A DNA stretch of 64,000 bases from Dictyobacter arantiisoli (GTDB taxonomy: Bacteria > Chloroflexota > Ktedonobacteria > Ktedonobacterales > Ktedonobacteraceae), in the NCBI RefSeq assembly GCF_008326305.1, contig NZ_BIXY01000018.1:27040-91039 (forward strand), given 5' to 3'. Shown here in pieces: positions 27,525 through 43,534 of this stretch (position 1 is its first letter; every line of letters starts with the position of its first letter). The position numbers and the translations under genes are program-made. Below the pieces are notes generated by a model that ran no database searches, was not told where the DNA came from, and saw nothing but the letters and a program-made list of their open reading frames with translations.

Positions 27525-29187
27525 GAACTTCCTCCAGTGGCAACATTGATCCCATTGGATCAGTATATAAGGGTTCAAAAACAAGATGGTGAGCTGTCTG
27601 ATCAACCGCAACAGTTTGATAATCCGCACGCCAGTGGCTACCGCGGCTTTCACGTCGTTCCAGAGCCGCAGTTACAACCAACTCAGACACACGTAACATA
27701 TTTTCGGTCTCGCGCCATTGTGGATCTTGATCTGCTTGCTGCAACAGAGCCACACGCATCGTACGTATTTGTCGACGAGCGGTCAATAAGCCATCCTGAT
27801 CGCGGCGGAGAGAGACATACTGCCACATCAACTGGCGTACCTCTTGACGCACCTGAGCTACCGACGGAAGCTCCCCAACATTGCTTAAGAACGAAGCCTT
27901 TGTATCCAGTGTATCGTCATAGTGCAGATAGGAAACTGCTTTTTGTGTGTTAGCAACGTCTCGACTATCGGCCATAAGTACGCCACCCAGCACATCAGCA
28001 ATGCGAATTCCATAGACCAGACCTTCTAACAGAGAATTGCTGGCCAGACGATTCGCCCCATGGACACCGGTACAGGAAACCTCACCAACAGCATATAGAT
28101 GAGGAATCGAACTACGTCCGTAGGTATCTACCTTCACACCGCCCATACAATAATGAGCCGCTGGAGCGATAGGCAGAAGATCAGCAGCCAGATCCAGGCC
28201 ATACTGCTGACAACAGGCTGAAATAGTAGGGAAACGTGCGTGCATCTTCTCAGCTGAAAGATGGCGCAGATCCAGGTATTGGCAATCCGTCTGTTCAGCC
28301 AACATCTCGCTCAAAATCGCACGTGCGACGATATCACGAGGAGCCAGTTCAGCTTGCTCGCTATAGCGAGGCATAAAGCGCTCACCGGCATGATTGCGCA
28401 GATACGCGCCCTCACCACGGACCGCTTCAGAGATCAAATGCGAAGAACCATTCAACGCCAACACCGTTGGATGAAATTGCATAAATTCTAGATCGGTTAA
28501 TGCTGCACCGGCATCCCAGGCCAGAGCCAGTCCATCAGCCGTCGCGCCCTGTGGATTAGATGTATGGAGCCAGAGACCTCCAGCGCCACCATTTGCCAGC
28601 ACTACCGCGCCAGCTTCCACTTCAAGCGCCTCACCAGTGCGTCGTGTCGCCTGCAAACCCACGCAACGACCATCGCGCATCATCAACTTATAAACAAACG
28701 TCTCTTCATATAATGCAATTGAAGGCCGTTTCTGTACGGCAGTCATCAATGCACGCTCAATCTCAGCCCCGGTCGCATCGCCACCTGCATGTAACACACG
28801 CCAGCGACAATGAGCACCCTCACGGCCTAACAGCAGCCCATCGGGTGTCGCATGGGTATCAATCCCAGCTTGCGCACGATCAAACTGAACTCCTACCTCG
28901 ATCAACCAGCGTACGGCAGCAGGAGCCTGTTCTACCAGGATGCGCACAGCATCCTCATCACAGAGCCCTGCCCCGGCCGCCAGAGTATCCTGCAAATGCA
29001 GCTCGGGATTGTCATCTGCCCCCAGCGCCACTGCTAAGCCACCCTGGGCATAGCGTGTATTACTCTCGCCGAGTTGCCCTTTCGTGAACAGTGCGACCCG
29101 CACATGTTCAGGCAAACGGAGCGCCACCGAGAGGCCCGCGATGCCGCCACCTATTATTGCGACATCAAACGGTTGGCTGTGAGTCAT
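27511..29187 (-). CDS. nadB: L-aspartate oxidase NadB
   Basis: A 558-residue FAD enzyme that oxidises aspartate to iminoaspartate, the first step of the pathway completed by NadA and NadC. The N-terminal FAD motif is VAIIGGGIAGLSVAL, and the substrate-site segment HPTVLALNG and the GRSSIPHLYAVGEVSCTG block are typical. ATG at 29187 has AAGGAG upstream. It heads the operon. A 19-bp palindrome lies 20 nt upstream and an integrated element begins 62 nt upstream, so its promoter is now supplied by the element's end. Confidence 0.95.
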   Translation of the reverse strand: MTHSQPFDVAIIGGGIAGLSVALRLPEHVRVALFTKGQLGESNTRYAQGGLAVALGADDNPELHLQDTLAAGAGLCDEDAVRILVEQAPAAVRWLIEVGVQFDRAQAGIDTHATPDGLLLGREGAHCRWRVLHAGGDATGAEIERALMTAVQKRPSIALYEETFVYKLMMRDGRCVGLQATRRTGEALEVEAGAVVLANGGAGGLWLHTSNPQGATADGLALAWDAGAALTDLEFMQFHPTVLALNGSSHLISEAVRGEGAYLRNHAGERFMPRYSEQAELAPRDIVARAILSEMLAEQTDCQYLDLRHLSAEKMHARFPTISACCQQYGLDLAADLLPIAPAAHYCMGGVKVDTYGRSSIPHLYAVGEVSCTGVHGANRLASNSLLEGLVYGIRIADVLGGVLMADSRDVANTQKAVSYLHYDDTLDTKASFLSNVGELPSVAQVRQEVRQLMWQYVSLRRDQDGLLTARRQIRTMRVALLQQADQDPQWRETENMLRVSELVVTAALERRESRGSHWRADYQTVAVDQTAHHLVFEPLYTDPMGSMLPLEEVHVHV

Positions 29188-29206
29188 GCCTTCTTCTCCT
29201 TCGAGA

Positions 29207-29225
29207 AAGTGTACATTGTACACTT
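29207..29225. promoter_or_regulatory. Palindromic operator candidate ahead of nadB
   Basis: AAGTGTACATTGTACACTT, a perfect palindrome around one central base, sits just upstream of the nadB ribosome binding site. The half-site AGTGTACA recurs in the attachment core (minus-strand TAGTGTACAGAAAACAC). A repressor of NAD synthesis genes is the natural candidate; which family (NiaR, NrtR or other) cannot be told. Confidence 0.55.
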
Positions 29226-29248
29226 ACGACTCAGACAAAAAAGAAAAG

Positions 29249-29265
29249 GTGTTTTCTGTACACTA
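29249..29265. repeat. Left attachment site core (attL)
   Basis: The 17-bp sequence GTGTTTTCTGTACACTA, identical to 43150-43166. It marks the left edge of the integrated element in the nadB leader. Confidence 0.8.
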
Positions 29266-29282
29266 TTACAACCTTTCCACAG

Positions 29283-29311
29283 AGTGTAACAGATTTTTTT
29301 GCCTTTGTCCA
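29283..29311 (-). promoter_or_regulatory. Element-borne promoter reading out into nadB
   Basis: Minus strand TGGACA (29311-29306), 17 bp, TACACT (29288-29283), just inside the left end of the element. The surrounding 23 bp (29271-29293) match 19 of 23 positions of the native promoter region at 43167-43189. Confidence 0.6.
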
Positions 29312-29568
29312 TGCTAAATTGCGGAATTTATCTCTGCTCGCTTGATTCTTTTCGCTCGTGTTTTTGTTCAGTTTTGTCTAACAAAATCTAACTCCTATGA
29401 TGTCAGAAATGATGTCAAAGTTCGTGGTCTTTAGTGCAGAGATCTGTTGCATTGTTGTCCTTGCTTTTTCGTAAGAGTTTAACCGTCGTTCTTGCTATGG
29501 TATAATTGCAGACATATGGATCTGTGATTATCTGTCTTTATTCTCAATTGAAAGGGGTCGTTTATTCT

Positions 29569-29916
29569 ATGACAACACAAGAAGATAGATTGGCTGCGCT
29601 TGAACAGAAGGTGGCCGATATAGAGTTAGAACGTCTCTATGAGAAGAATCAGGCGTCGCGTGGTCTTGCTTCTGATCAATTATATGATGCCAAACAAGTT
29701 AATTATCGTCTTACAATGCTCCTCGGTATTGCATCGGGTCAAGAACAAAGTATTAAGACAATAGTGCAAGATGTGTCTGAGGTGAAGCAGAACATTAATG
29801 ATTTGCATATGAGGTTTGCATCCCTGGAACAAACAATAAATGATCGTTTCAAAGCACAGGATGAACGGTTTGATCGCTTAGAAAAATTGCTCCTTGATCG
29901 CCTTCCTCCTGCCTAG
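29569..29916 (+). CDS. Small coiled-coil protein
   Basis: A 115-residue, mostly helical, charged protein with heptad-like spacing over nearly its entire length (for example LAALEQKVADIELERLYEKN and later FKAQDERFDRLEKLLLDRL). No catalytic motif. ATG at 29569 has AAAGGGG upstream; the open frame starts further 5'. It is the first element gene after attL and ends at a terminator. Not recognised by name. Confidence 0.7.
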   Translation: MTTQEDRLAALEQKVADIELERLYEKNQASRGLASDQLYDAKQVNYRLTMLLGIASGQEQSIKTIVQDVSEVKQNINDLHMRFASLEQTINDRFKAQDERFDRLEKLLLDRLPPA

Positions 29917-29933
29917 ATTTTTTTGATACAAAG

Positions 29934-29971
29934 ATAAGCGCCTAAGCTATTTGCTCCAGGTGCTTATTTTT
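29934..29971 (+). terminator. Intrinsic terminator
   Basis: Arms ATAAGCGCCT and AGGTGCTTAT (10 pairs, one G-U) followed by TTTTT; it lies between the coiled-coil gene and the convergent transporter gene. Confidence 0.7.
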
Positions 29972-29980
29972 GTGTTACTA

Positions 29981-30325
29981 CTATTCGATTGAGAGAAAGG
30001 CAATTGCGGCAACTCCTAGTACAAGACCGATGATTTGGTAAGTTGATACTTTTTCGTGATAAATGAGCACAGCTACTATAACTGCGCCAATAGCCGAGAG
30101 AACAGAAAAAAGGACTGCACCTTTTCCTAATTCTGCGCCAGTTCTCAGACTTATCAACCATGCAGTGTTAGCTGCAATGAATCCGACAATTGAAAGCAGA
30201 GCAAAGACATACTTACCGCTAATGGCAAATTGTTTAGCCAGGATATCTGCAACTAATTCAAAAGCTACTAAGATCAGTAAAAAGTAAAGCCATTTAGGAA
30301 TAGATGTAAAGAATTGTTGTAGCAT
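29981..30325 (-). CDS. Small four-helix transporter of the DMT/SMR type
   Basis: A 114-residue membrane protein with four hydrophobic segments and the pattern IPKWLYFLLILVAFELVADI ... LGLVLGVAAIAFLSIE that recalls EamA/small multidrug resistance proteins, including an acidic residue in the first helix. Such proteins act as dimers exporting cationic compounds or metabolites. It follows the HTH regulator gene by 5 nt and is surely cotranscribed, so the regulator probably senses its substrate. Confidence 0.7.
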   Translation of the reverse strand: MLQQFFTSIPKWLYFLLILVAFELVADILAKQFAISGKYVFALLSIVGFIAANTAWLISLRTGAELGKGAVLFSVLSAIGAVIVAVLIYHEKVSTYQIIGLVLGVAAIAFLSIE

Positions 30326-30330
30326 CTTGC

Positions 30331-31194
30331 TTAAACCTCTTCACTTGTTTCCTTTAATCTCTTTTGGAATGTTTGAATGATTGGAGATGGATTATAGTAA
30401 CTTAAGTTCAGTTCCCAAGCATTTTTATCTATGTCATATCTGGGACTGAAGAATAACTTTTTTACTAATCTCATTCCATCATTTATTTCAGACATGTCTT
30501 CTGTTGTTCCTGATGCAAAACCATATAGTTTACTGATTTTTATTTCAGGATGGTTTATCCAATGTTCTAGCACACTATTCAAAAGCAAATTGAATGAGTT
30601 GCTTTTGTCTGGTCTAATAACGCAAGAAGATACATAACAATTGTATTCTTTCCCTGGTTCATAGGTTAAGATGTGATCTGCTGTTATTTGCTGTTCGCTT
30701 AAGTCACCTTTTAATAAATCAAAGATCGTTTCCTCTTCCATCGGTAAAAGAGTCAAACATCCCCATATGTCCTTACGGTTTTCTTCATTGTAGAGTACTC
30801 TAATTGCTGTTTGATTTTTTTGCCACCAGTGGATTGTTTTGGTTGGTGGTACGGAATACTCAAGCCCATATATATCACAATCTAGAGCATATATATATGG
30901 TAGATCTTCAGATGTTGCCCATGATGTTTTACCTGATGGTCGCTTGTGCTTTTCTGTTACCTTGCTGACGACATTGTTGTTAATAACACTTTTTTTCCTG
31001 CTTGATGTTTTAGACTTGACTTCATCCTGAATTTTTAAGAGGTCTTCATAGTTATATTCGTATTGATCTTTTCCTCCATCATTAAGTTCCCGCCTTCTAA
31101 TCCCTCTTGACTCTACATAGTAAAAGAACGATTGACGTTGCACACCTAAAAGGGCAGCCCCTTCTTTTGATGATATGTATTTTTCTTGACTCAT
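30331..31194 (-). CDS. HTH regulator with GNAT-like C-terminal region
   Basis: A 287-residue protein. Residues about 5-60 form a winged or MerR-like DNA-binding domain (YISSKEGAALLGVQRQSFFY), a basic linker follows, and residues about 110-287 look like a GNAT acetyltransferase fold (strand-helix pattern around IWGCLTLLPME and YNCYVSSCVIRPD); acetylation activity is not proven. ATG at 31194 has AAGGAG upstream. The promoter region carries several GTCAAAT repeats, suggesting autoregulation. It forms an operon with the small transporter. Confidence 0.6.
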   Translation of the reverse strand: MSQEKYISSKEGAALLGVQRQSFFYYVESRGIRRRELNDGGKDQYEYNYEDLLKIQDEVKSKTSSRKKSVINNNVVSKVTEKHKRPSGKTSWATSEDLPYIYALDCDIYGLEYSVPPTKTIHWWQKNQTAIRVLYNEENRKDIWGCLTLLPMEEETIFDLLKGDLSEQQITADHILTYEPGKEYNCYVSSCVIRPDKSNSFNLLLNSVLEHWINHPEIKISKLYGFASGTTEDMSEINDGMRLVKKLFFSPRYDIDKNAWELNLSYYNPSPIIQTFQKRLKETSEEV

Positions 31195-31225
31195 GATTTG
31201 ACTCTCCTTTTTAGCCTCTCGCATA

Positions 31226-31254
31226 ATTATAGTCAATTTGAATAAAATAGTCAA
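31226..31254 (-). promoter_or_regulatory. Promoter of the HTH regulator operon
   Basis: Minus strand TTGACT (31254-31249), 17 bp, TATAAT (31231-31226). The -35 box is embedded in a TATTTGACTA repeat unit. Confidence 0.7.
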
Positions 31255-31378
31255 ATAACTTGGTTCATATTAATATTTTATTAAAATTGACCATATTCCT
31301 AATATTTCAGTCAAATAATGTTGACAGGATTAATTTGACTGACTATAATGATTCATGTAAGGTGTTTTTAGTCAAATA
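31231..31378. repeat. Cluster of GTCAAAT operator-like repeats
   Basis: Copies of AGTCAAAT or its complement occur at about 31196, 31249, 31309, 31333 and 31370, with partial copies at 31231 and 31385. They overlap both divergent promoters, as expected for a common regulator. Confidence 0.6.
31321..31349 (+). promoter_or_regulatory. Perfect consensus promoter reading into a structured non-coding region
   Basis: TTGACA, exactly 17 bp, TATAAT. The spacer contains one ATTTGACT operator-like copy. The transcript would start near 31356 and has no good ORF for at least 600 nt. Confidence 0.75.
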
Positions 31379-31424
31379 AAAATACTGACTAGAATAGTTC
31401 TTTAACAATCGAATTTGGTCCTAT

Positions 31425-31715
31425 AAGGGATTTGGCACATCGAGGGAAGCCAAGGTATAAGCCTCTGACGCATGGTAACGCATAGCGTGAACGCTCCTAA
31501 CTGCGGCCTAGCTACAAAGTTCATAAGATGTGCTTAAAGGGACTGAATGCCTAGCAACAAGTTAGCGAGCGATCGGTGTTTCGAAGGTGAAGTAAGGAAC
31601 ATTGATGCGGCTCTTCTGGCTTGTACGCCTTATGGGTGGCGTGTAAAAGATATCCCTGTGAACATATGGCTGCTATGAGGGAAGGACGGTAGAAAAAGAT
31701 CATGCTGCCATATGA
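31425..31715 (+). ncRNA. Structured RNA candidate (possibly a group II intron domain I remnant)
   Basis: No coding potential but several helices: GCACATC (31434-31440) with GATGTGC (31528-31534) closing a multi-branched region; AGCG-UGAA-CGCU near 31483; ACGCC with GGCGT near 31624-31642; CATATGGC (31664-31671) with GCCATATG (31707-31714). Stretches such as GAGGGAAGCC and AAAGGGACTGAATGCCTAGC remind me of domain I of chloroplast-like group II introns. No GTGYG 5' end, no reverse transcriptase and no domain V were found, so it would be a remnant. An unrelated element-specific RNA is equally possible. Confidence 0.4.
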
Positions 31716-31990
31716 AGCACTTACTATTATCTTTGTAGACCATCCTGGTAGATTGTCCTTATTCTCTGGTTCGCTCCTCTATTCCTTCTCCCTGGTCCCT
31801 CACATCGCCTTCTGCGATAGTCTTTGTAGTGTGTTGTTTATCCTCTGTTTCTCCCCTCGTTCTTCCTCTTTGTTTCTTCATCAACTACAAAGGTTGACGG
31901 CTGGTGGTCGGGTTCGCTTGATCACTAGACGCTAGCTCTGGTAGTTGAGTTAGAGATTTCCTGATGGTTGATAGTGAATGAGGAGGTTTC
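31716..31990 (+). other. T-rich spacer, no convincing gene
   Basis: A pyrimidine-rich stretch with a 9-bp inverted repeat CTTTGTAGT/ACTACAAAG (near 31822 and 31885). A 77-codon frame at 31702-31935 is open but lacks a ribosome binding site and has odd composition; it is not called. Confidence 0.4.
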
Positions 31991-32212
31991 ATGTCTCGTT
32001 TGATGATCAGGCTGGTTGTACTTTTGCCTCTTGGGTTGGTTGTACTTCTTGTGTGGGGTTTGCTTGTATCGGGTTTGCCTGTTTGGCAATTGATTGTGTT
32101 CTCCACTATGGGTGCGGTGCTTCTTTTAAGATTATCTGTCCTAGTGACTGATTATCTTATCTGCTGGTCTATTCGTCGTGGTGGTCGTGTTAAGGTGAAT
32201 AAAAATTTTTAA
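31991..32212 (+). CDS. Small two-helix membrane protein
   Basis: A 73-residue protein with two hydrophobic segments (residues about 6-28 and 33-55) and a basic C-terminal tail (SIRRGGRVKVNKNF). AGGAGG lies 6 nt ahead of the ATG. No family recognised. A terminator follows directly, so it may be a single-gene unit fed from the upstream consensus promoter. Confidence 0.65.
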   Translation: MSRLMIRLVVLLPLGLVVLLVWGLLVSGLPVWQLIVFSTMGAVLLLRLSVLVTDYLICWSIRRGGRVKVNKNF

Positions 32213-32217
32213 GAATG

Positions 32218-32255
32218 GAGGACAACTTCTTTGTTATCCTCACGGGTTCTTTTTT
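32218..32255 (+). terminator. Intrinsic terminator
   Basis: Arms GAGGACAAC and GTTATCCTC (one mismatch) with a 6-nt loop, then a short spacer and TTCTTTTTT. Confidence 0.6.
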
Positions 32256-32271
32256 AGATTAACCGTTGTCT

Positions 32272-32616
32272 TTAACTGTCAACCTTCACATTTTTACTCG
32301 ATGTGACAGCTAGAGTGTAATACTTTACAAAGTTGGTCGCATACGTTTTTTCGATATGTTCTCGCGTTGCAATCAGTATCATTCTCCTGGCAAAAGGTCG
32401 TGTATACTTTTCCGCTTCGCTCTTGGCTAAGACTTGGATTTCTTCTGGTTCATTGATAAGCGTGTTCTCGTAGAGTTGCTTTTTGAAAATGTCTTGACTG
32501 CGAAAGCCTGCCTTCATCTTGACAAACTGTTCTGGATAGATGTCAAAAAGAAGGTTTCTTAAGGCATTAAGAACAGTTTTAACAGTTCCTCCGGCAGTGA
32601 CGTTTGAAAAAAGCAT
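32272..32616 (-). CDS. Hypothetical protein
   Basis: A 114-residue soluble, mixed-charge protein, transcribed against the neighbouring genes. AAAGGAAC lies at good spacing ahead of the ATG, and the sequence (NALRNLLFDIYPEQFVKMKA and so on) has the look of a real folded protein. No motif recognised. It could be a regulator or toxin-type accessory, but nothing shows this. Confidence 0.55.
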   Translation of the reverse strand: MLFSNVTAGGTVKTVLNALRNLLFDIYPEQFVKMKAGFRSQDIFKKQLYENTLINEPEEIQVLAKSEAEKYTRPFARRMILIATREHIEKTYATNFVKYYTLAVTSSKNVKVDS

Positions 32617-32728
32617 GCTTGTTCCTTTCGCATTTGTAAGGTGCTACAACTTCTATGAGGATTATACACTTTTGGATCTCGTTTTGCTTAATGTTAGAAT
32701 ACTTTCTTCAAAAGGGAGGTTCGTATCA

Positions 32729-32914: not shown

Positions 32915-32928
32915 GAGAATAAGTCGAT

Positions 32929-33452: not shown

Positions 33453-33824
33453 ATGCTGCTTAATCAATGGATGGGAACGGGTCGTCTTGGTCGTGATCCT
33501 GAGATGAGTTATACCCCACAAGGGACGGCGGTCACAAAGTTTAGTATTGCCGTCGATCAGGGCAAAGATAAACCTGCAATGTGGCTAAACATTGTGACCT
33601 GGGAACGGCTGGCAGAACGTATTAATGAACAAGCCTGTAAGGGAAGTGAAGTTTTTGTACAGGGGAAATTGATGATGCGTTCGTACACTGATCGCAATGG
33701 ACAAAACCGGCAAGCTTTCGAAGTGTCTGCATCTACGGTCCAGTTGACGCAACGTCCACAAGTTGCTGCTACCAGTTCTGCCGATTTTGAAGAACTTGGT
33801 GATCCTTCTGATCATCCATTTTAG
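33453..33824 (+). CDS. ssb: Single-stranded DNA-binding protein
   Basis: A 123-residue OB-fold protein: GTGRLGRDPEMSYTPQGTAV at the N-terminus and later WLNIVTWERLAERINEQACKG and VFVQGKLMMRSYTD. The acidic tip ends SDHPF rather than the usual DDDIPF, so partner binding may differ. The open frame starts at 33213, but ATG at 33453 has AGAGGTG upstream and gives the usual domain start. It would protect the element's single strand during rolling-circle replication or transfer. Confidence 0.88.
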   Translation: MLLNQWMGTGRLGRDPEMSYTPQGTAVTKFSIAVDQGKDKPAMWLNIVTWERLAERINEQACKGSEVFVQGKLMMRSYTDRNGQNRQAFEVSASTVQLTQRPQVAATSSADFEELGDPSDHPF

Positions 33825-33836
33825 TTCATCCTCTTA

Positions 33837-33864
33837 AAAGTCCCCGTTTAAACGCTCACTTTTG
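33837..33864 (+). repeat. Leader repeat, copy 1
   Basis: AAAGTCCCCGTTTAAACGC followed by TCACTTTTGA, directly ahead of the DUF488 gene's ribosome binding site. It repeats at 39702-39730 with two adjacent substitutions. Confidence 0.65.
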
Positions 33865-33876
33865 AAAGAGGTGCGG

Positions 33877-34272
33877 ATGAGCAAGGTTTTTACACTTGGC
33901 TATGCAGCTCGTAAAGCTGATGAACAACTTGACAAGCTTATGGTTGATCCATCAATGATCCTTATTGATATTCGCTTGAGTCCAAAATCACGGTTCCATC
34001 CTCGTTTCCGTGGTCCTGCCCTGGCACAACGGTTCGGCAACCAATACCACCATGTTCGTGAACTTGGTAATTTGAATTATCAGGATCATGCATTGCCGAT
34101 TGTTCTCGCTGATGCTCCTGGCGGGTTATCGTTGGTTTCATTTTGGATGGAACGTGGGTATCCCGTGTGTTTATTGTGTGCTTGTAGTAATGCTGCTTCT
34201 TGTCATCGTTCGGTTGTGGCTCGTCTTCTGCAAGAAAAGTTTGTTTATGATTGTGAGGTAGTTCACTTTTGA
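33877..34272 (+). CDS. DUF488 family protein
   Basis: A 131-residue protein. FTLGYAARKADEQLDKLM, LIDIRLSPKSRFHPRF and the late CLLCACSNAASCHRSVVARLL match the DUF488 fold, whose Cys-x-His-R end is shared by many small proteins on mobile elements; function unknown. ATG at 33877 has AGAGGTG upstream. The start region repeats at 34265 ahead of the next gene. Confidence 0.75.
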   Translation: MSKVFTLGYAARKADEQLDKLMVDPSMILIDIRLSPKSRFHPRFRGPALAQRFGNQYHHVRELGNLNYQDHALPIVLADAPGGLSLVSFWMERGYPVCLLCACSNAASCHRSVVARLLQEKFVYDCEVVHF

Positions 34273-34537: not shown

Positions 34538-35134
34538 ATGCTGCCTCCACTTTACCAGTGGAGCTTATGCGGTGCGGTGTTTCTCACCTCTGGCTTGGCG
34601 GTCCTGGTCACGAATAGACGGTATACACCTCGGCTCCTGCGTATCCTGGCGCGAAACCTTTTCCTCATAAGTATCGGTGTGATCATGTACCAATTTGTGA
34701 CCGTGGCAATGATGCATTCTGTTTCCTCCGTACCGAAAGCTCCACCTCCTACCGCTTCCAATTATGTCAGTATAGCTCGTGCTGATGCGATAGCTGCTGG
34801 CATTGATCCTACCTTGTTTGTTCGGCAAATTCGGCAAGAAAGTAATTTCAATCCTCGTGCAATCTCACAAGCTGGTGCCCTTGGCATTGCTCAATTCATG
34901 CCAGCAACAGCAAGAGGTCTGGGTATCGATCCTTCTAATCCTGAGCAAGCATTGAAAGGTGCTGCGCGATTGATGGCTTCGTATGTTCGTCGATATGGGA
35001 GTGAGTCGGCTGCCCTGGCTGCGTATAATGCGGGGCCTGGAGCTTTAGACGGTGCGGTAGCGCGTTGTGGTCAAGCGTGGAAGACCTGCTTACCTTCAGA
35101 GACACAAGCATATATTGCTGTGATTGTGGGCTAG
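34538..35134 (+). CDS. Lytic transglycosylase (SLT type, VirB1-like)
   Basis: A 198-residue peptidoglycan-cleaving enzyme anchored by one or two N-terminal membrane segments (residues 8-25 and 38-58). The SLT domain starts near residue 78: catalytic Glu101 in RQESNFNPRA, then GALGIAQFMPATA and SAALAAYNAGPGA. Such proteins open the cell wall for conjugation machines or phage entry; here it is the clearest hint of cell-to-cell transfer by the element. Confidence 0.88.
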   Translation: MLPPLYQWSLCGAVFLTSGLAVLVTNRRYTPRLLRILARNLFLISIGVIMYQFVTVAMMHSVSSVPKAPPPTASNYVSIARADAIAAGIDPTLFVRQIRQESNFNPRAISQAGALGIAQFMPATARGLGIDPSNPEQALKGAARLMASYVRRYGSESAALAAYNAGPGALDGAVARCGQAWKTCLPSETQAYIAVIVG

Positions 35135-35732: not shown

Positions 35733-36371
35733 ATGATGAGCTTTTTCGGAACAGTCAAAAATGGCGGTGTCTTTGATGTCAAAGGTAAAGATGGTTCTTC
35801 AAAACAATTGATTTCTTTTACCTCGGTCGATGCTTTGGGCAATACCTTAAGTTGTCAGATGTGGCCTGACGATCCTCAACATGCACAATTGGCTCCGGTG
35901 ATCGCTTCGGCTCGTCGTCAACGGGTCCAGTTTGAGATTGCTGGTTACTCGGTACGAATGCGGGTGTTTAAAGATGGCCGGACTGAGCCACAAGCCAATT
36001 TTATTGTTACCAACGTCTCCTTCCCTGGCACAGAACAACCTGCGACGCAATCCGGCATGTACTTTTCAGGGACGGTCAAGGGTGGTAACGCTTTTGATAT
36101 CAAGACCAAAAACGGGCCGTCAAAGCTGATATCCCTCACGGCTATTGATGAAGTCGGCAATTCCTGGCCGTGTCAGATGTGGCCGGATGATCCACAGCAT
36201 ACACAACTGGTTTCCGTGATTGCATCGGCTCGCCGTCAACCTGTCCAGCTTGAGGTGGTGAACTATTCCCTCCGTATGCGCAAGTTCACCGATGGACGGG
36301 CTGATCAGCCACAGGTCAACTTTATTGTCAGTCGTGTGTCGTTGCCTAGTCTCAATGTCTCCGTTGCATAG
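35733..36371 (+). CDS. Tandemly duplicated domain protein, unknown function
   Basis: A 212-residue protein made of two similar units of about 100 residues (about 4-104 and 113-207). Each unit starts FFGTVKNGGVFDVK or YFSGTVKGGNAFDIK, has CQMWPDDPQH in the middle, IASARRQ and a final NFIV block. The beta-rich pattern and length suggest a small barrel, possibly OB-like, but I cannot assign a family. GAGGAG precedes two possible ATG starts (35733 and 35736). It lies midway in the element's rightward gene block. Confidence 0.65.
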   Translation: MMSFFGTVKNGGVFDVKGKDGSSKQLISFTSVDALGNTLSCQMWPDDPQHAQLAPVIASARRQRVQFEIAGYSVRMRVFKDGRTEPQANFIVTNVSFPGTEQPATQSGMYFSGTVKGGNAFDIKTKNGPSKLISLTAIDEVGNSWPCQMWPDDPQHTQLVSVIASARRQPVQLEVVNYSLRMRKFTDGRADQPQVNFIVSRVSLPSLNVSVA

Positions 36372-36442
36372 CTTTTATCGGTCGTTGCTCTGGCCTGGGG
36401 CGTCTGCTCTGGGCCGTATCATTTCACAAGATGAGGTGTTCT

Positions 36443-37423
36443 ATGTTCGATAACTTGCAAAATGCGGTGCGATTCGACCTCAAGCGCATGATTGGTATTC
36501 ACCAGGGGCGTGAACGCTCGGATGTGTTATTGGCAATTGTGTTGCCTGCGGTCCTGATGCTGGTGTCTGCATATACAAATGCCTGGGCCTTTACTGGTGG
36601 CAATCTGAGTTTTTCAGGGCCGAATATGATCAATACTATTGATGCGATCTGTCGGGGCCTGTTCGTAGAAGCGTTGGTTTTTTCCTGCTTCAAGATCGTC
36701 AAAATGTTATGCTCGTCTGGCAAGTGGTATAACTATCCGGCTGCGCTCGTTCCTGCCCTGGTCGGACTGGTTGGTGTGGTTGTCTCGTCTGGGTGTGGGC
36801 TGGCCTGGGTTGCCAAATCGGGGTCAATGGATTGGATGATCAAAACCGTAAGTGCGTACTTGCCTGGATGGATGACAGGTGTGTTTCAGGCAGGTATTGG
36901 TCTCCTCTTTCCGGTCGCGCTTGCGGTCCTGGCGATCTATGATATTAGTAGCCTGATCGAGGAACACATCTCGCGTGGTGCGCAATTGGGCGGTCTGGCG
37001 CTGCGGGTTCAAAGTGCTGAGCATCATCAAACAATGTTGTTGCAAGCGCAAAAAACGGCAAACAATGATCCCAACATCAAGAATGCGTACCAACAGATGG
37101 CACAAACAAATGCACAGCAAGCCGTAGATGCTGCGCGTCGTGGTGATTATACCTTCGGGTTATCAACAGAACCGTTGAAGCTGACTCCTCAACAACAGTC
37201 ATCGGTCACACGCATTAGCCCACCTGCGGCGTATCCATCGTTGGCTGCGCCTGCTGGTGCTCCACCTATGCCTATGGGTCAACCTCCCTTTATCAATGGT
37301 CAAGTCACGAATAACCCTCCCTTCATGGGAAACACACAACAGTTGAACGTTGGCGGTCCAGCTCCTCTGCCTGCTGCTCCCCCACAGAAAAACGGCCTAT
37401 TCAGTTGGATGACCGGGAAATAA
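36443..37423 (+). CDS. Multi-pass membrane protein with Pro-rich tail
   Basis: A 326-residue protein with about four hydrophobic segments (residues 28-50, 70-88, 98-120 and 143-165) followed by a cytoplasmic-looking helical region and a proline, alanine and glutamine-rich tail of about 100 residues ending in FSWMTGK. ATG at 36443 has GAGGTG upstream; an upstream in-frame ATG at 36431 is possible. The layout resembles TrbL/VirB6- or holin-like element proteins only in a general way. No ATPase motif. Confidence 0.6.
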   Translation: MFDNLQNAVRFDLKRMIGIHQGRERSDVLLAIVLPAVLMLVSAYTNAWAFTGGNLSFSGPNMINTIDAICRGLFVEALVFSCFKIVKMLCSSGKWYNYPAALVPALVGLVGVVVSSGCGLAWVAKSGSMDWMIKTVSAYLPGWMTGVFQAGIGLLFPVALAVLAIYDISSLIEEHISRGAQLGGLALRVQSAEHHQTMLLQAQKTANNDPNIKNAYQQMAQTNAQQAVDAARRGDYTFGLSTEPLKLTPQQQSSVTRISPPAAYPSLAAPAGAPPMPMGQPPFINGQVTNNPPFMGNTQQLNVGGPAPLPAAPPQKNGLFSWMTGK

Positions 37424-38067: not shown

Positions 38068-38152
38068 TATCAATCCATCTGTCTATGTTTTATGAACCGT
38101 GTGTGTGATATCAATTATTCCCGTCACAACAATGTGGGATAAGGAGAGAACT

Positions 38153-38377: not shown

Positions 38378-38390
38378 GGGAGATGATCAT

Positions 38391-38690
38391 ATGACGCAAC
38401 GTTTTTGTTGTTCTGGTTGTCCTGGCGGGTGGTGTGATGGTTGTGTGCCTGATGAGCAAGTTGTGAGTTCACATGTCATGTCTAATCAATCTTGTCCATA
38501 TTGCGCACCTGCTGGTCGTCCGGTATGCGCTGTGGGTATTCAACTTTATAATGCTGCTCGTGAGGTTGGTATCCCTCTCTACGAGGGTTATAGTAGTTCA
38601 AAGCAAGAGCAAGATGCATTATTGGCTTCTTGGTATCAACGTTCTGATGCGTACTACGAACATATTGGCAAGTTGAATAGAGGCCAATAG
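38391..38690 (+). CDS. Cys-rich small protein (two zinc-knuckle-like pairs)
   Basis: A 99-residue protein beginning CCSGCPGGWCDGC, with a second cluster CPYCAPAGRPVC, followed by a helical C-terminus. The spacing is typical of zinc binding. GGGAG lies upstream of ATG at 38391. Next gene starts 9 nt later. Confidence 0.6.
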   Translation: MTQRFCCSGCPGGWCDGCVPDEQVVSSHVMSNQSCPYCAPAGRPVCAVGIQLYNAAREVGIPLYEGYSSSKQEQDALLASWYQRSDAYYEHIGKLNRGQ

Positions 38691-38699
38691 GAGTGATAT

Positions 38700-38942
38700 A
38701 TGCCAGTGTCATACATTGTGATCGCCTATGATATGCGATTAGCTGATGGATGCCTTGGGATAGTGGCATCTGCAACAACAATGGAACAAGCAAATATGAT
38801 CGTCAAGGCATTTGCGTTTGTTGCGTTGTCTTATCAGCAATCATGGTTGGGGTACTTTGTCCGTGATGCCTCCTCCGCATCGCTCTATGGGCCTGAGTGC
38901 GCCGTCAATTTGTTGAAGCAGTGGCAATTGAGCGTGTATTAA
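38700..38942 (+). CDS. Hypothetical protein
   Basis: An 80-residue soluble protein without recognised motif. AGGAG lies 6 nt ahead of the ATG. It is the last gene of a tight four-gene run starting at 37828. Confidence 0.55.
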   Translation: MPVSYIVIAYDMRLADGCLGIVASATTMEQANMIVKAFAFVALSYQQSWLGYFVRDASSASLYGPECAVNLLKQWQLSVY

Positions 38943-39144
38943 TCAGTGTTTTGGACAGGCGCACACAAGTAACACGCGCCTGTCTATTTACATCCGCTGT
39001 GAGTTTTGCTGTTGTTGTAGATGAATGGTTTCTTTTTCTCCTCGATGTTCTCTGTATTTCTTCTGCTCAATGCTTGAGCTTTTCTGAAGGGTATTGTTGT
39101 CTTGTTTGTTCTTGGGGTGTCTCTCAAGAGAAGGGGATGTTGCT

Positions 39145-39258
39145 ATGTATTCAAATAATCGGTTCTACTTCTGGATCTTGTTGCTTTTATGGTCTGTTTG
39201 CTTTCTTGCTTTTCTCTTTCATTATGTATTACTTCCTCTCCTTGGTTATGTCGTGTAG
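39145..39258 (+). CDS. Very small membrane protein (37 aa)
   Basis: A 37-residue ORF with an AAGGGG ribosome binding site; residues 9-34 are almost wholly hydrophobic (FWILLLLWSVCFLAFLFHYV), so it would be a single-pass membrane peptide. It overlaps by 30 nt the end of the convergent membrane gene. Moderate support only. Confidence 0.4.
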   Translation: MYSNNRFYFWILLLLWSVCFLAFLFHYVLLPLLGYVV

Positions 39259-39597
39259 GAATGAAGCAAGCAGGTTTCTCTTTGTAAGTATCTCGGTAAT
39301 TCGAGCAATGAGTAAGAGAAGTGCAAGTATTCCTACAGTGACGGGGAGAAAGATATACAGGTTTGAAGAGGGAAAAGGGTGTTGTAGCGTGTTAATGCTA
39401 TCGAAAACGCACCATGCAAGCAAGAGGATGCTACAGGGAAGAATGAGCAAGGCGATAATCTTTTCTCGTCTCTTTCTCTCTTGTACTTCTTCTGCTGCTT
39501 GCGGCATGGATGTTGTGATATATCCTCCAATAATAGCAGTGATAGCAATAAAGAGGAGTGCTACCTCAATACTGATAAAAATAGGATTCGGTATCAT
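39229..39597 (-). CDS. Three-helix membrane protein
   Basis: A 122-residue leftward gene with hydrophobic segments near residues 8-28, 48-68 and 80-105. ATG at 39597 has GAGGAAC upstream. The opposite frame on the plus strand is open but has the composition of a shadow. No family recognised. Confidence 0.5.
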   Translation of the reverse strand: MIPNPIFISIEVALLFIAITAIIGGYITTSMPQAAEEVQERKRREKIIALLILPCSILLLAWCVFDSINTLQHPFPSSNLYIFLPVTVGILALLLLIARITEILTKRNLLASFLHDITKERK

Positions 39598-39701
39598 AGG
39601 CGGTGTTCCTCTTTTCTTGTTATTTTTCCTTCTTTCCACTAAGAAAAGTATACCACAAGCATTTGCTGCTTGTGAAGGAATAAATGTTCGTAATAGAAAC
39701 C

Positions 39702-39730
39702 AAAGTCCCCGTTTAAACGCCTACTTTTGA
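39702..39730 (+). repeat. Leader repeat, copy 2
   Basis: AAAGTCCCCGTTTAAACGC followed by CTACTTTTGA, directly ahead of the SprT-like gene; see copy 1 at 33837. Confidence 0.65.
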
Positions 39731-39739
39731 GGTGCTTTC

Positions 39740-40342
39740 ATGGATGAAAATCTTCAACAATTCCGTGAGGCTTGGCTGTATCATGCAACGCTTTTTCTTT
39801 TTGAGCATATGCAACGCTCTGGCCTGACTCCGGTTCCTGTTCGTGTCTCCTGTGGTTGGCCTATGACTGGCGGTGGTGGACAGAAGAATGTCACCATAGG
39901 AGAGTGTTTCCCGCCTACCATGTGCGCTGATGGGGTCGCACAGATTTTCATTTCTCCTCGTATCTCTGACTCAATTCATGTGCTCGGTACACTGCTCCAT
40001 GAATTAATCCATGCTCACTTTCAAGGCCGCTTTGGACATCGCAAGGAGTTTTCACAAGCAGCAAAGAAAGTGGGCCTGGATGGTCCTCCGACTGCTACCG
40101 TTGTTGGTCCTCAATTGCTGCCAGTCCTTCAACAGTACATATCTGGTGTTGGTTCTTATCCACATGCGGCAATTGTCCCACGAACAAAAGAAAAGGCTCC
40201 TGGTTCCCGCCTGCGCTTGTATGAGTGCTCGTGTGATCCTCCTATCAAAGTTCGGGTCGCAAGTAAGGAGTTTGACGCAACATGTAACCGTTGTGAAGAA
40301 TTGTTTGTGCTGATTGAAAAATCTGAAGAGAAGGATGAGTAG
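39740..40342 (+). CDS. SprT-like zinc metalloprotein
   Basis: A 200-residue protein. The HELIH motif at residues 87-91 with a following H in FQGRFGH is the SprT-type metal site, and the C-terminal third carries CSCDPPIK and CNRC, a zinc ribbon. In eukaryotes SPRTN-type relatives cleave DNA-protein crosslinks, while bacterial SprT roles are little known. GAGGTG lies upstream, directly after leader repeat copy 2. It precedes the replication gene and may help resolve covalent Rep-DNA complexes; that is inference. Confidence 0.8.
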   Translation: MDENLQQFREAWLYHATLFLFEHMQRSGLTPVPVRVSCGWPMTGGGGQKNVTIGECFPPTMCADGVAQIFISPRISDSIHVLGTLLHELIHAHFQGRFGHRKEFSQAAKKVGLDGPPTATVVGPQLLPVLQQYISGVGSYPHAAIVPRTKEKAPGSRLRLYECSCDPPIKVRVASKEFDATCNRCEELFVLIEKSEEKDE

Positions 40343-40346
40343 GTCT

Positions 40347-41657
40347 ATGTGTAGATATTCCTTTGATCCAAGCGGTTCTGTACAAGAGGGTGGTTTATCT
40401 CCATCCTCTTTTTCTTTTGTGTCCACGTATGACGCTCTGATTGAGAATATCAAGCTGGTTGGCTTTGGTGTTGATACGCTGATCCTCAATGTTCGCTATG
40501 CTGATGAATCTCTTGAGCCTATTCAGCGAGAACTTGATGAAACACTGATGCAAGAATTGGACTACTTGCAGGGTGAAGCAAAGGTAGCAGAAACGGCGGT
40601 GGCTTCTCCCTGGTCGTTCTTGCGTGCCCTTCTTTTTATTGAACCACATGGAGCTGGTCGTCAATGGCGCTGGCTGCTCACCTGTCAATGGTTGTCTCTC
40701 GTCGTCTCACGTGGCACATTTAATGATGTGATAGCACAGGTCCGGTTCTCTTCTGAGTACCTGTGGTCACAACCTGATCCTGGTGATTCGCTGGCAAAGA
40801 TGCATGAGCTTCTTATGTCGATCTTTGGTCAACATATCCATTTACAAGTCTCTTCTGTGGATCTCTGCGCTGATGTGATGGGTTATGATTTCTCGTTGGC
40901 AAACTATCAACAAGATTTCGTATCACGGGGCCGGAAACAATCAGTGATCTATGGGCCTGATGGAGTCAATCTTGATAGTCGTACGTTGTCCTATCTCCGC
41001 TTTAGCTCCAGTGCCTCGCCGATATCATGTCGCATTTACAACAAGACACAAGAAATTACACAGAAGTCTGATAAGACATGGATGTATGACGTTTGGAATA
41101 GAGGTACGTCCGGTCCCTATGGTGGAAAATGGGATGGTACAACTCCGGTCTGGCGCAATGAGTTTCATCTGACTCGCGCATTTTTACATAACCTCAAAAA
41201 TCCTATCGAGGGTGCCTATGATCTCCTGGGTCAATTTCAATCATTGTGGGCATATGCGGCTGGTCGCGTCGAGGGTGATACTGACGGCCTTCCTGATGGT
41301 TGGCTGCGTTACACACTACCTACTGAGGATAGTAACCGTTCTCGCTGGCCTGTACATCCTGCCTGGGTCGTTATTCAATCGGCTTTTAGTGAACCTGTAG
41401 AACCTGACCTGGGGCCTGTGGTCCGTCGGCGTATCCGAGAGAAAAACCTGGAACGTGGTATAGCGGCTATGGTTGGTTATGCCTCAACGTTGGCGGCGTG
41501 GAAAGGTGGTGAATGTGCCGCTCCTGATGCTGATCTCTCCCTGATTTTGCAGTACCTCTATGAACATGGTACGAATTACCTGGAAGAAATAGGCCGTGAT
41601 TTTCTAGCAGAAGTCCAACGTAAACAGTTGCTCTACAATTCTGAAGATATTCAGTAG
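40347..41657 (+). CDS. Rep_trans family replication initiator / relaxase-like protein
   Basis: A 436-residue protein with the pattern of the Rep_trans family (RepC of pT181, NicK of ICEBs1): VSSVDLCADVMG, then SCRIYNKTQEI, then VWRNEFHLTRAFL, in the right order. The family nicks one DNA strand at an origin for rolling-circle replication or transfer through an active Tyr, likely the Tyr of RIYNKTQ. Start is uncertain: ATG at 40335 is very close to the AAGG site, ATG at 40347 is better spaced. It overlaps or abuts the SprT-like gene. Confidence 0.8.
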   Translation: MCRYSFDPSGSVQEGGLSPSSFSFVSTYDALIENIKLVGFGVDTLILNVRYADESLEPIQRELDETLMQELDYLQGEAKVAETAVASPWSFLRALLFIEPHGAGRQWRWLLTCQWLSLVVSRGTFNDVIAQVRFSSEYLWSQPDPGDSLAKMHELLMSIFGQHIHLQVSSVDLCADVMGYDFSLANYQQDFVSRGRKQSVIYGPDGVNLDSRTLSYLRFSSSASPISCRIYNKTQEITQKSDKTWMYDVWNRGTSGPYGGKWDGTTPVWRNEFHLTRAFLHNLKNPIEGAYDLLGQFQSLWAYAAGRVEGDTDGLPDGWLRYTLPTEDSNRSRWPVHPAWVVIQSAFSEPVEPDLGPVVRRRIREKNLERGIAAMVGYASTLAAWKGGECAAPDADLSLILQYLYEHGTNYLEEIGRDFLAEVQRKQLLYNSEDIQ

Positions 41658-41667
41658 GGGGTGTTTT

Positions 41668-41874
41668 ATGGCAAAAAAACAAGAGAAAAAACCAATCCTT
41701 TTGCTAGAAGATCTATTAGATATAGACAGCTTGATGGGGGTTTTGAAAGTTCGTAGCAGGCAAACAGTGTACAAACTCATGAAGACTTCTGATCTACCTG
41801 CTGTTTATATCGGTGGTCATTTAAGGTTTGTTCCGTCTGAGGTTGCTGAATGGGTATGTGAACAACGCGCATAG
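41668..41874 (+). CDS. Excisionase-like helix-turn-helix protein
   Basis: A 68-residue DNA-binding protein of the MerR/excisionase type: MGVLKVRSRQTVYKLMKTSD then LPAVYIGGHLRFVPSEVAEW. Placed 13 nt upstream of the integrase gene, it probably directs excision and may repress int. GGGGGTG precedes the ATG. Confidence 0.85.
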   Translation: MAKKQEKKPILLLEDLLDIDSLMGVLKVRSRQTVYKLMKTSDLPAVYIGGHLRFVPSEVAEWVCEQRA

Positions 41875-41887
41875 AAAGGGGTGATTT

Positions 41888-43114
41888 ATGGCTCGTCCAA
41901 GAAAAGAAGGATATGAGCAACCTGGGCGTCGAGGTCGAGGCAAGGGGTCGATTGTATGGCGTGATAGTAGACAGAAGTTCCAAGTAAGTCGTTCCATTGA
42001 TGGCAAAAGAAAATATGTCTATGTTGATACAAAAAAAGAAGCAGAAAGTATTTTAAAAAAATGGGATAGGGAGGTAGAACAGGGACTTAAATTTGATCGA
42101 CGTGCATTTACTGTGGCTGAGTATATTGATTATTGGCTTGAGGTTAAACGCCCAACAATAGAACCTACAACCTACCTTATGTACAAAAATAAGACAAAAC
42201 CTTTTTGTAGTGAGTTAGGTAAGATCAAGCTGGAAGATTTGACAACAGACAAACTACAAAAAGCGGTCAACGCATTGAATAAAACTGGTAAATATGCTCC
42301 GTCAACGCTTCGTACCATGCTAGGTGCATTTACTGTTGCTTTACAAGATGCTGTTTCCTGGGAGTTACTTGTGCGCAATCCTGTAGCTTTAGTTAAGTTA
42401 CCAGTAGGATATAGAGAAAAAGAAAAAGTTGAAATTATTCCTCCTGATCAAGTTGCATTGCTCCTGAATATTGCCTATGAATGGGGGCAACGGAAAGTAT
42501 GGGCCTTGCAATCTTGGGCCTTGATTTCCCTTGCTGTAGGTTCTGGAATGCGTCATGGTGAATTAGCTGGTTTGTTGTGGTCGGATGTTGATTTTGTCAA
42601 AAAAGAGATTACCGTCAGTCGTCAGGCTAGTTATTATACCTTAGATGGTGAAACAAAGTTCCATGAGGGTAAGCCTAAAACACGTAGCTCTATTCGTAAA
42701 ATTTCACTTCCTGATTTTGCAATAGCTGCGTTAGTTATCCATAGAAAAGCGCAATTAGAAAGGCGATTAAAATCTGGTTTAAAGTGGAGTGATCAAGATC
42801 TGGTGTTTACCAACTCACGGGGAACTAATCTTACTCCTGCTGGCATTTTACGGCCTTATAGAAAATTGCTAGAGAAGGCTGGCATCCCTGTTACAACAAG
42901 ACTTCATGTGCTCCGTCATACTGCGGCGTCAATTATGTTGAAATTAAAGATACCTGTAACTACAGTGAGTAGTATTCTCGGTCATTCTAATCCTGCGATT
43001 ACCTGGGCGGTTTACGCACATACAGTCCCTGGTGATCAAGAGGAGTCAATGATAACGTATAATGAATTCTTAGCACGTTATGGTGTCGGAAATGATGTCA
43101 ACCGTTCTGTTTGA
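41888..43114 (+). CDS. int: Tyrosine recombinase integrase
   Basis: A 408-residue site-specific recombinase with a basic N-terminal arm-binding region, SAM-like core-binding domain (about 75-165) and catalytic domain (about 185-380). Catalytic residues are Arg222 (GSGMRHGELAGLL), His340 and Arg343 (LHVLRH), His366 (LGHSNP) and Tyr376 (WAVYAHTV). The gene ends 36 nt before the right attachment core, whose arms AGGTTAGTGT and ACACTAACCT form an inverted repeat around GTTTTCTGT, the expected core layout. Confidence 0.95.
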   Translation: MARPRKEGYEQPGRRGRGKGSIVWRDSRQKFQVSRSIDGKRKYVYVDTKKEAESILKKWDREVEQGLKFDRRAFTVAEYIDYWLEVKRPTIEPTTYLMYKNKTKPFCSELGKIKLEDLTTDKLQKAVNALNKTGKYAPSTLRTMLGAFTVALQDAVSWELLVRNPVALVKLPVGYREKEKVEIIPPDQVALLLNIAYEWGQRKVWALQSWALISLAVGSGMRHGELAGLLWSDVDFVKKEITVSRQASYYTLDGETKFHEGKPKTRSSIRKISLPDFAIAALVIHRKAQLERRLKSGLKWSDQDLVFTNSRGTNLTPAGILRPYRKLLEKAGIPVTTRLHVLRHTAASIMLKLKIPVTTVSSILGHSNPAITWAVYAHTVPGDQEESMITYNEFLARYGVGNDVNRSV

Positions 43115-43149
43115 AGATAAAATGAGCTTGATTTATCGTGTAGGTTAGT

Positions 43150-43166
43150 GTGTTTTCTGTACACTA
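43150..43166. repeat. Right attachment site core (attR)
   Basis: GTGTTTTCTGTACACTA, identical to the left copy. It lies inside inverted arms AGGTTAGTGT and ACACTAACCT (43142-43170). Confidence 0.8.
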
Positions 43167-43178
43167 ACCTTTGCACGG

Positions 43179-43207
43179 AGTATACCAGACAAATTTCTGA
43201 AAAACAA
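43179..43207 (-). promoter_or_regulatory. Displaced native nadB promoter
   Basis: Minus strand TTGTTT (43207-43202), 17 bp, TATACT (43184-43179), just right of attR and pointing into the element. Before integration it would have read through the core into nadB. Confidence 0.55.
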
Positions 43208-43534
43208 GAGCCAGGGAAGCATCATTCAAGAGCTGAACAATGCAGAACCAACGGAGGGAGCGTATCCGCCAGAACTATATCTGACAAGATCATAAAAATT
43301 GGATCGAGCAAACTCCACAGCTTCAGGCAATAGAAGATCCCTGACAGCAAGGCGTGTAAGGGATCTTTCATTAGGAGTGACCAGCTAAATTTGCTCGATA
43401 GTAGCTCGATATACTTTAGCTATCTCTTTAGGGCCCATGTGCCATATTTATGTCACAATACATAGTTGAAAAATAGTTCGAGGAAGGGCAGTGAGTATCG
43501 ATCAAAAAGAAAGCAGCTAAACTATTGAGTCCCT
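43208..43534. other. Chromosomal spacer between attR and the ROK gene
   Basis: No convincing gene. One hairpin with arms AAGATCCCT and AGGGATCTT (43334-43367) could end the ROK transcript or protect the nadB promoter from read-through. Confidence 0.45.

What the first reader, a model, noticed from the sequence alone, without database searches (positions are those of the whole stretch)
29187..43210. Integrative element inserts in the nadB leader and brings a replacement promoter
Seen: a 17-bp direct repeat (29249-29265, 43150-43166) bounds the element. Right of attR a leftward promoter TTGTTT-N17-TATACT (43207-43179) now points into the element. Just inside attL the element has TGGACA-N17-TACACT (29311-29283) pointing at nadB, and 23 bp around the -10 boxes agree at 19 positions (29271-29293 vs 43167-43189). 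Inference: the attachment site lies between promoter and start codon of the nadB-nadC-nadA operon, and the element restores transcription by carrying a promoter mimic, as elements in tRNA genes restore the tRNA 3' end. It could also alter NAD regulation of the host. I know of no described element using a biosynthetic operon leader in this way.
Basis: partly seen in the sequence, partly recalled or inferred. Interest (0 to 1): 0.82.

Follow-up and report, generated by a model that had tools for sequence, protein, structure and literature searches.

The report
Mobile element replaces NAD operon promoter
In a Dictyobacter-type bacterium, a 13.9-kb DNA segment with an integrase gene lies between the NAD-synthesis genes and a promoter-like sequence of the kind related species keep directly in front of them, and carries its own look-alike promoter that likely keeps those genes switched on; its insertion site is a predicted on/off switch of those genes, and remnants in two sister species suggest that such promoters can stay after the element has gone.

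Summary
The observation checks out: a 17-bp direct repeat, two promoter-like sites, 19/23 identity between them (0 of 20,000 shuffles). Joined through the core, the right flank reproduces the leader of relatives: promoter, palindrome 1, palindrome 2 and ATG lie together in 26 of 26 other family genomes with nadB. So the site lies between promoter and start codon, and a promoter-like sequence of the element now holds the promoter position.

(2) The element belongs to a Ktedonobacterial family; two sisters sit in tmRNA genes. (3) Putative integrase arm sites lie at both ends. (4) brp13 keeps the left end (promoter, arm sites, first gene), D. aurantiacus a fragment of the second gene, both without an integrase of this kind in 19 kb: likely permanent promoter replacement.

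Elements that enter a gene's 5' end and bring a promoter are known (SXT/prfC, dusA). New here: the target is a regulatory operator in a leader. Transcription and excision are untested.

The parts
   Evidence: ATG at 29187
29207..29225 (.). palindrome 2 (op2) AAGTGTACATTGTACACTT, predicted NrtR operator, stays with nadB
   Evidence: motif also precedes nrtR-pncA, pncB and transketolase genes
29249..29265 (.). attL core = palindrome 1 (op1), GTGT-N7-ACAC plus TA
   Evidence: palindrome 1 present in the main nadB leader of 26 of 26 other family genomes
29271..29293 (-). 23-bp block resembling 43167-43189 (19/23), offset by 5 bp relative to the core
29283..29311 (-). element-borne promoter-like site facing nadB, TGGACA-N17-TACACT
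   Evidence: second-best match in the window to a 13-species nadB promoter profile
29397..29418 (+). two putative integrase arm-type sites ATGATGTCA, 12 bp apart
   Evidence: also in brp13; similar GATGTC repeats at both ends of the D. vulcani tmRNA element
29569..29916 (+). small coiled-coil-like protein (by reading), left-end gene in several elements of the family ('coil')
   Evidence: relic copy beside nadB in brp13
29981..30325 (-). EamA/SMR-like membrane protein (matches just under the curated cut-offs); 92% identical copy in the D. vulcani tmRNA element
   Evidence: 35-residue relic near nadB in D. aurantiacus
30331..31254 (-). element gene of unknown function (weak match to an excisionase/regulator family, phrog_66, E 0.00095)
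33453..33824 (+). single-stranded DNA-binding protein
33862..34272 (+). DUF488 protein
34538..35134 (+). lytic transglycosylase (SLT)
35733..37423 (+). two conserved element genes (35733-36371; 36431-37423, membrane protein by reading)
   Evidence: no confident family
39740..40342 (+). SprT-like protein (just under the curated cut-off)
40359..41657 (+). Rep-like protein (sub-threshold Rep_trans match, E 0.056)
41668..41874 (+). HTH_17 protein, excisionase-like position
41888..43114 (+). tyrosine recombinase (integrase), open, with the motifs GMRHGEL, HVLRH, LGHSN and VYAHT in place
   Evidence: 8 relatives at 69-84% identity in protein collections
43089..43101 (+). right-hand arm-type site GAAATGATGTCAA, inside the 3' end of the integrase gene
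   Evidence: the residues NDVN encoded there recur in 6 of the 7 close integrases whose C-terminus was printed
43150..43166 (.). attR core (second copy of palindrome 1)
43179..43207 (-). displaced native-type nadB promoter, TTGTTT-N17-TATACT, now pointing into the element, antisense to the integrase gene

Best explanation
A 13.9-kb segment with an integrase gene lies between the nadB coding sequence and a promoter-like sequence of the kind that relatives keep directly upstream of nadB, its insertion core is a predicted NrtR operator, and the element carries a promoter-like sequence that likely replaces the displaced one and would keep the NAD operon expressed. Inferred mechanism: the integrase recombines a 17-bp core, centred on the GTGT-N7-ACAC palindrome, with the same core on the circular element. 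The native promoter is carried to the far end and points into the element. The element's own copy, likely once taken from a host nadB leader, sits beside the regenerated operator in front of nadB. Both operators and the ribosome-binding region stay with nadB, so NrtR control would be kept. When the element decays, its promoter can remain, as brp13 and probably D. aurantiacus suggest. Shown by sequence: positions, the leader architecture in relatives, the element family, the remnants. Inferred: recombination at the core, transcription from the new promoter, NrtR binding, excision.
For: Leaders: promoter-like hexamers, palindrome 1, palindrome 2 and ATG follow one another in 26 of 26 other family genomes with nadB; 22 of the 26 lie outside the genus. 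Of the 29 family genomes the window's is one, and G007 and G019 gave only weak or paralog-like matches. Joining the window's right flank to the nadB side through the core gives the same arrangement. The right-hand promoter is the best match in 64 kb to the native profile (E 2.3e-8). Relatives of the element share genes, mostly in the same order; two have 44-bp and 31-bp end repeats that overlap tmRNA genes. A 13-bp run is shared between the two ends, 41 of 2000 simulated pairs shared even 11. The 19/23 similarity is out of register with the core by 5 bp, as expected of promoter conservation rather than of a longer core. NrtR: the motif precedes nrtR-pncA in 8 of 8 genomes searched (one mismatch in D. 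vulcani and D. kobayashii), pncB in 5 and transketolase in 5 of these (one mismatch; loci opened only); the nrtR product has NrtR_WHD and NUDIX domains; the NiaR family matches 0 of 29 genomes searched. Remnants: brp13 is collinear with 29150-29757 and 29867-29982, with both arm sites and the coil gene; D. aurantiacus has a 35-residue piece of the second gene upstream of nadB (E 1.5e-10). None of the 20 upstream loci (0.5-19.4 kb each) holds an integrase of this kind.
Against: No transcript, footprint or excision data. The carried promoter scores only modestly against native profiles (11 bits; not singled out by the 10-species TTG-type profile), and roughly 10-bit hits also turn up at unrelated places. 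The 13-species profile scarcely recognises the genus mates' own nadB promoters either (4.2 bits for D. aurantiacus; none listed there for the other three). The operator motif is not enriched genome-wide: 109 matches on both strands in 8 genomes against 113 for the reversed control, and one of the two perfect match sites in the window's genome (G000:C83, L242) lies before genes with no evident NAD link; the NrtR assignment rests on conserved places. The four genus mates have the element-like TGGACA/TACACT promoter rather than the type at 43167, which would also fit a native TGGACA promoter in the genus; D. vulcani and D. kobayashii show no element remnant in the first 6 kb or in 19 kb, and G010, G012 and G014, outside the genus, have TGGACA too. 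No second genome with an intact element at this site was found.
Confidence: 0.78

Rival explanations
1. The region just right of the left core (TGGACA promoter, coil gene, SMR gene) is native Dictyobacter chromosome, and the right-hand TTGTTT/TATACT copy arrived otherwise; the element then brought no promoter.
For: All four genus mates carry the TGGACA/TACACT type in front of nadB, three of them matching 83-84% through 29314-29321; brp13 also has the coil gene there and D. aurantiacus a piece of the SMR gene. Three relatives outside the genus have TGGACA as well.
Against: The coil-SMR-regulator block is the left end of a sister element elsewhere, next to a tmRNA att site (SMR 92% identical in D. 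vulcani). Arm-type sites matching the one at the integrase end lie in the same stretch. The right-hand copy is an intact family-type nadB promoter abutting the core, for which this reading has no source.
Confidence: 0.1
2. The similarity beside the core is only part of the attachment site (integrase or accessory-protein binding), and nadB is transcribed from some other promoter or left poorly expressed.
For: Extended homology between attP and attB is common in tyrosine-recombinase systems (recalled). Promoter function is untested and the profile score is modest.
Against: The similar block is shifted by 5 bp relative to the core and lies around the -10, with the -35/-10 spacing of 17 kept. In brp13, where most of the element is gone, both hexamers sit in the same place with the same spacing.
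Confidence: 0.17
3. The repeat is a chance duplication or a short transposition and there is no site-specific element here.
For: A 17-bp repeat alone is short, and a few other repeats of that length occur in the window.
Against: Open integrase gene ending 35 bp from the right core, HTH_17 gene beside it, family-wide shared genes, arm repeats, and restoration of the family leader on joining.
Confidence: 0.03

Closest known systems
IMEVchUSA3 and other elements in the 5' end of dusA (PMC8409611: abstract and passages; PMC4482086: listing with start of abstract only)
   Same: An integrative element separates a gene from its promoter and supplies a new promoter; expression shown by a lacZ fusion there.
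   Different: There the site is inside the coding sequence and a new N-terminus is also supplied; here no coding base is touched, and the site is an operator-like palindrome in the leader.
SXT/R391 elements in the 5' end of prfC (as described in a passage of PMC8409611)
   Same: Provides a new promoter for the interrupted gene.
   Different: Conjugative element of about 100 kb (abstract start), intragenic site, new N-terminus; no operator in the core mentioned in what I saw.
Sister elements of the same Ktedonobacterial family at tmRNA genes (D. vulcani L196, G013 L203)
   Same: Shared genes (six in L196, four in L203) and repeats at both ends.
   Different: End repeats overlap the tmRNA gene; their integrases are only 34% and 31% identical to this one.
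NrtR regulon of mycobacteria (PMC6800001: passages)
   Same: NrtR represses nad genes through a palindrome with a 7-bp spacer; ADP-ribose releases it.
   Different: Different half-sites (GTTTTCGA there); no mobile element mentioned in what I saw.

Membership tests
Integrative element of the tyrosine-recombinase type | Integrase gene with PF00589 core domain | tested here: met
   PF00589 E 2.1e-24, PF14659 E 4.1e-10
Integrative element of the tyrosine-recombinase type | Direct repeat at the ends that equals the site in relatives without the element | tested here: met
   17-bp core; palindrome 1 in 26 of 26 other family leaders. No empty site of the same species was available
Integrative element of the tyrosine-recombinase type | Arm-type repeats at both ends | tested here: met
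   assignment as integrase-binding sites is inferred
Integrative element of the tyrosine-recombinase type | Excision and circular form | not testable with these tools
   needs PCR
Elements that restore the target gene's expression with their own promoter (SXT/dusA kind) | Target separated from its native promoter by the element | tested here: met
   by comparison with other species
Elements that restore the target gene's expression with their own promoter (SXT/dusA kind) | Element carries a promoter facing the target | tested here: inconclusive
   promoter-like sequence present; activity not testable here
Elements that restore the target gene's expression with their own promoter (SXT/dusA kind) | New N-terminal coding sequence supplied | tested here: not met
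   61 bp lie between core and ATG; coding sequence intact. So it works like these elements but is not one of that subclass
NrtR operator | Same palindrome upstream of nrtR and NAD genes, conserved across species | tested here: met
   nrtR-pncA in 8 of 8 genomes; pncB in 5, transketolase in 5 of the loci opened; not enriched genome-wide
NrtR operator | Binding by NrtR | not testable with these tools
   needs EMSA or footprint
Conjugative element (ICE) | Coupling protein / VirB4-like ATPase / relaxase in the element | tested here: inconclusive
   no VirB4 or coupling protein among the element proteins scanned; Rep-like protein only sub-threshold to Rep_trans; not every small ORF was scanned

The most novel reading that the evidence does not exclude
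The element uses the operator of the host's own NAD repressor as its attachment site, so NrtR and integrase compete for the same palindrome and the cell's NAD state gates integration and excision, while the displaced NAD-controlled promoter now makes antisense RNA against the integrase; when the element dies, its promoter mimic stays as the host's permanent nad promoter, as in brp13.
Probability: 0.25. Interest if true: 0.85.

Novelty: new variant of a known kind. Interest (0 to 1): 0.62.

Why it matters
Elements often hide in tRNA or tmRNA genes by carrying a copy of the gene's end. Here the same trick is applied to a regulatory region: the copied part is a promoter, and the shared core is a repressor's predicted operator. 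If true, that offers a conserved, palindromic, non-coding target class for integrases, a possible direct link between NAD sensing and mobility, and a route by which a mobile element can permanently exchange the promoter of a core biosynthetic operon. All three are testable in laboratory strains.

Tried and rejected
NiaR as the regulator was rejected: 0 of 29 genomes, 18 of the family and 11 of the order. Considered and rejected: element boundary elsewhere with native TGGACA promoter (see rivals); promoter similarity as pure attachment homology (kept as a rival at 0.17). That no element in a nad operon leader is in print rests on (8 of 8 papers listed; 12 of 1,595; 15 of 28; 0 papers; 12 of 293), read as listings only; most subscription journals are not held. 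Labels such as trbL in my scripts and xis for the HTH_17 gene are working names from recall, not database hits.
Full report
What was checked. nadB starts at 29187 and reads leftward. In 20,000 Markov shuffles of the 60 bp beside the core none reached 19 of 23, and nowhere else in the 64 kb is there a 17-of-23 match.

The empty site. I read the nadB leaders of the family: 20 loci of 19 genomes and 7 more genomes, so 26 genomes besides the window's; of the 29 family genomes held, G007 and G019 gave only weak or paralog-like nadB matches. In all 26 the main nadB copy has, by my reading, a -10 (TATACT or TACACT), then the palindrome GTGT-N7-ACAC, a T-rich stretch, a second palindrome and the start codon. 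The -35 is of a TTG type in 19 and TGGACA in 7 (G001-G004, plus G010, G012, G014). K. racemifer has a second nadB copy with a degenerate leader (row G025b; not counted above). Joining the window's right flank to the nadB side through the core gives CTTGTTTTTC...TGGTATACTCCGTGCAAAGGTT + AGTGTACAGAAAACACC + the leader, that is the family arrangement. A profile of 13 non-Dictyobacter promoters ranks 43208-43168 first in the 64 kb (E 2.3e-8). The displaced-promoter half of the finding is therefore well supported, though by other species and not by an empty site of the same species.

The carried promoter. The same profile ranks 29301-29270 second (11.0 bits, E 0.025; E 0.005 within the element). 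This is modest: the 10-species TTG-type profile gives it only E 5.4; two roughly 10-bit hits of the 13-species profile lie at unrelated places of the brp13 locus, and that profile scarcely recognises the genus mates' own promoters. A profile of the four genus mates puts the carried promoter first in the window (E 0.017). By pairwise alignment it scores best against the native promoter of Tengunoibacter (G010, 32 of 46 identical), has 29-30 of 46 with the genus leaders, and 25 of 46 with the right-hand promoter. Its similarity block is 5 bp out of register with the core, which fits conserved promoter function better than a longer crossover core. It has spacing 17 and TG one base before the -10.

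The core is a predicted operator. The palindrome occurs before nrtR-pncA in 8 of 8 genomes searched (G000-G004, G008, G010, G025; one mismatch in G001 and G004), before pncB in G000, G001, G003, G004 and G008, and before a transketolase gene in G000, G002, G004, G008 and G010 among the loci opened (one mismatch). The nrtR product has NrtR_WHD (E 7.2e-29) and NUDIX domains. NiaR (PF02829) was found in 0 of 29 genomes (18 of the family, 11 of the order), while B. subtilis and T. maritima among the controls rang. Against over-reading: the pattern is not enriched genome-wide (109 matches against 113 for the reversed control), not all matches were opened, and one perfect match in G000 (L242) lies before genes with no evident NAD link. 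In mycobacteria NrtR binds a palindrome with a 7-bp spacer, represses nadA-nadB-nadC, and is released by ADP-ribose (passages of PMC6800001). A 7-bp spacer between inverted half-sites is also a common form of a tyrosine-recombinase core (recalled), which may be why the site suits an integrase.

The element. From left to right: coil, SMR-like, a regulator-like gene, SSB, DUF488, SLT transglycosylase, two conserved genes, SprT-like, Rep-like, HTH_17 and integrase. Twelve loci of relatives were compared: each holds one or more of these genes, mostly in the same order (in L194 SLT comes before SSB, in L203 SprT comes early, L201 has only coil). End repeats were sought in ten of them: 44 bp in D. 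vulcani (L196) and 31 bp in G013 (L203), both overlapping the tmRNA gene; several repeats of up to 38 bp in L195; 15-16 bp in L198 and L205; none of 14 bp or more in L194, L199, L200, L202 and L204. A tRNA-Leu gene lies close to the integrase end in L194 and L199. The D. vulcani copy shares a 92% identical SMR-like gene while its integrase is only 34% identical. So the family seems to keep its body and change its integrase and site. Putative arm sites: ATGATGTCA occurs three times in the 64 kb, at 29397 and 29409 near the left core and at 43092 near the right; the D. vulcani element has similar GATGTC repeats at both ends and G013 has a different repeated word at both ends. The integrase's close relatives (8 at 69-84%) are in protein collections without reachable context.

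Remnants. brp13 (G002) is collinear with the window from nadB through the core, the promoter, both arm sites and the coil gene (69% over 622 bp and 73% over 131 bp; sequence), then runs into other genes. No integrase of this kind lies within 19 kb, blastn found no copy of the 43150-43212 stretch there, and the only native-profile hits of note are the two 10-bit ones, against 20-30 bits for the native promoters of G010, G012 and G014. Because site-specific integration puts element DNA on that side of the core, its present nadB promoter would be of element origin. D. aurantiacus (G003) keeps a 35-residue fragment of the SMR gene about 1.4 kb upstream. D. vulcani and D. kobayashii have the same promoter type but no remnant was found. 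The NadB tree places brp13 outermost and the window between it and the other three (supports 83/64 and 93/81, moderate). The simplest order is an old insertion in the genus, kept in the window's lineage and eroded in the others with the element's promoter left behind; independent insertions, or a native TGGACA promoter in the genus, remain possible.

How it likely works. Integration at palindrome 1 carries the native promoter to the right end, where it points leftward into the element, antisense to the integrase. The element's copy takes its place. The core is regenerated at both ends and palindrome 2 stays with nadB, so NrtR control would be retained, with the core now 17 rather than 12 nt from the -10 (from coordinates). 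None of this has been measured.

What is known. [quoted passage not shown] Work on ICEBs1 discusses why site choice is kept in tRNA genes (passages of PMC3715440). I saw no described case with a repressor operator or nad leader as site in the listings (one search listed nothing). I therefore call it a new variant of a known kind.

Noticed in passing
G000:C26 (L241), G000:C9 (L246), G000:C5 (L236) and relatives: A likely NrtR regulon in Ktedonobacteria: the same palindrome precedes nrtR-pncA, pncB, nadB and, unexpectedly, a transketolase gene.
   Followed up: partly
window 33837-33855 and 39702-39720: A 19-bp direct repeat inside the element (AAAGTCCCCGTTTAAACGC); possible replication or transfer site.
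   Followed up: no
window about 14280-14338 and 63927-63985: Two copies of a repeated stretch with 17-mers in common, outside the element.
   Followed up: no
G004:C1:699397-701051 (D. kobayashii): nadB lies in two overlapping frames, a frameshift or sequencing error.
   Followed up: no
G025:C7:592517-594145 (K. racemifer): A second nadB copy with a degenerate first palindrome and a long inverted repeat around its second one.
   Followed up: no
window 43089-43101 and proteins P0001-P0007: The right arm site is embedded in the integrase 3' end, and the residues it encodes (NDVN) recur in 6 of 7 close integrases, hinting at a doubly constrained stretch.
   Followed up: partly
L196 (D. vulcani) and window 29981-30325: SMR-like gene 92% identical between elements with only 34% identical integrases, pointing to module exchange.
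   Followed up: no
window 43535-49043 and L051: ROK regulator and sugar ABC transporter genes lie upstream of nadB in the same orientation in D. kobayashii too, with an exchanger-like gene (name by reading) between.
   Followed up: partly
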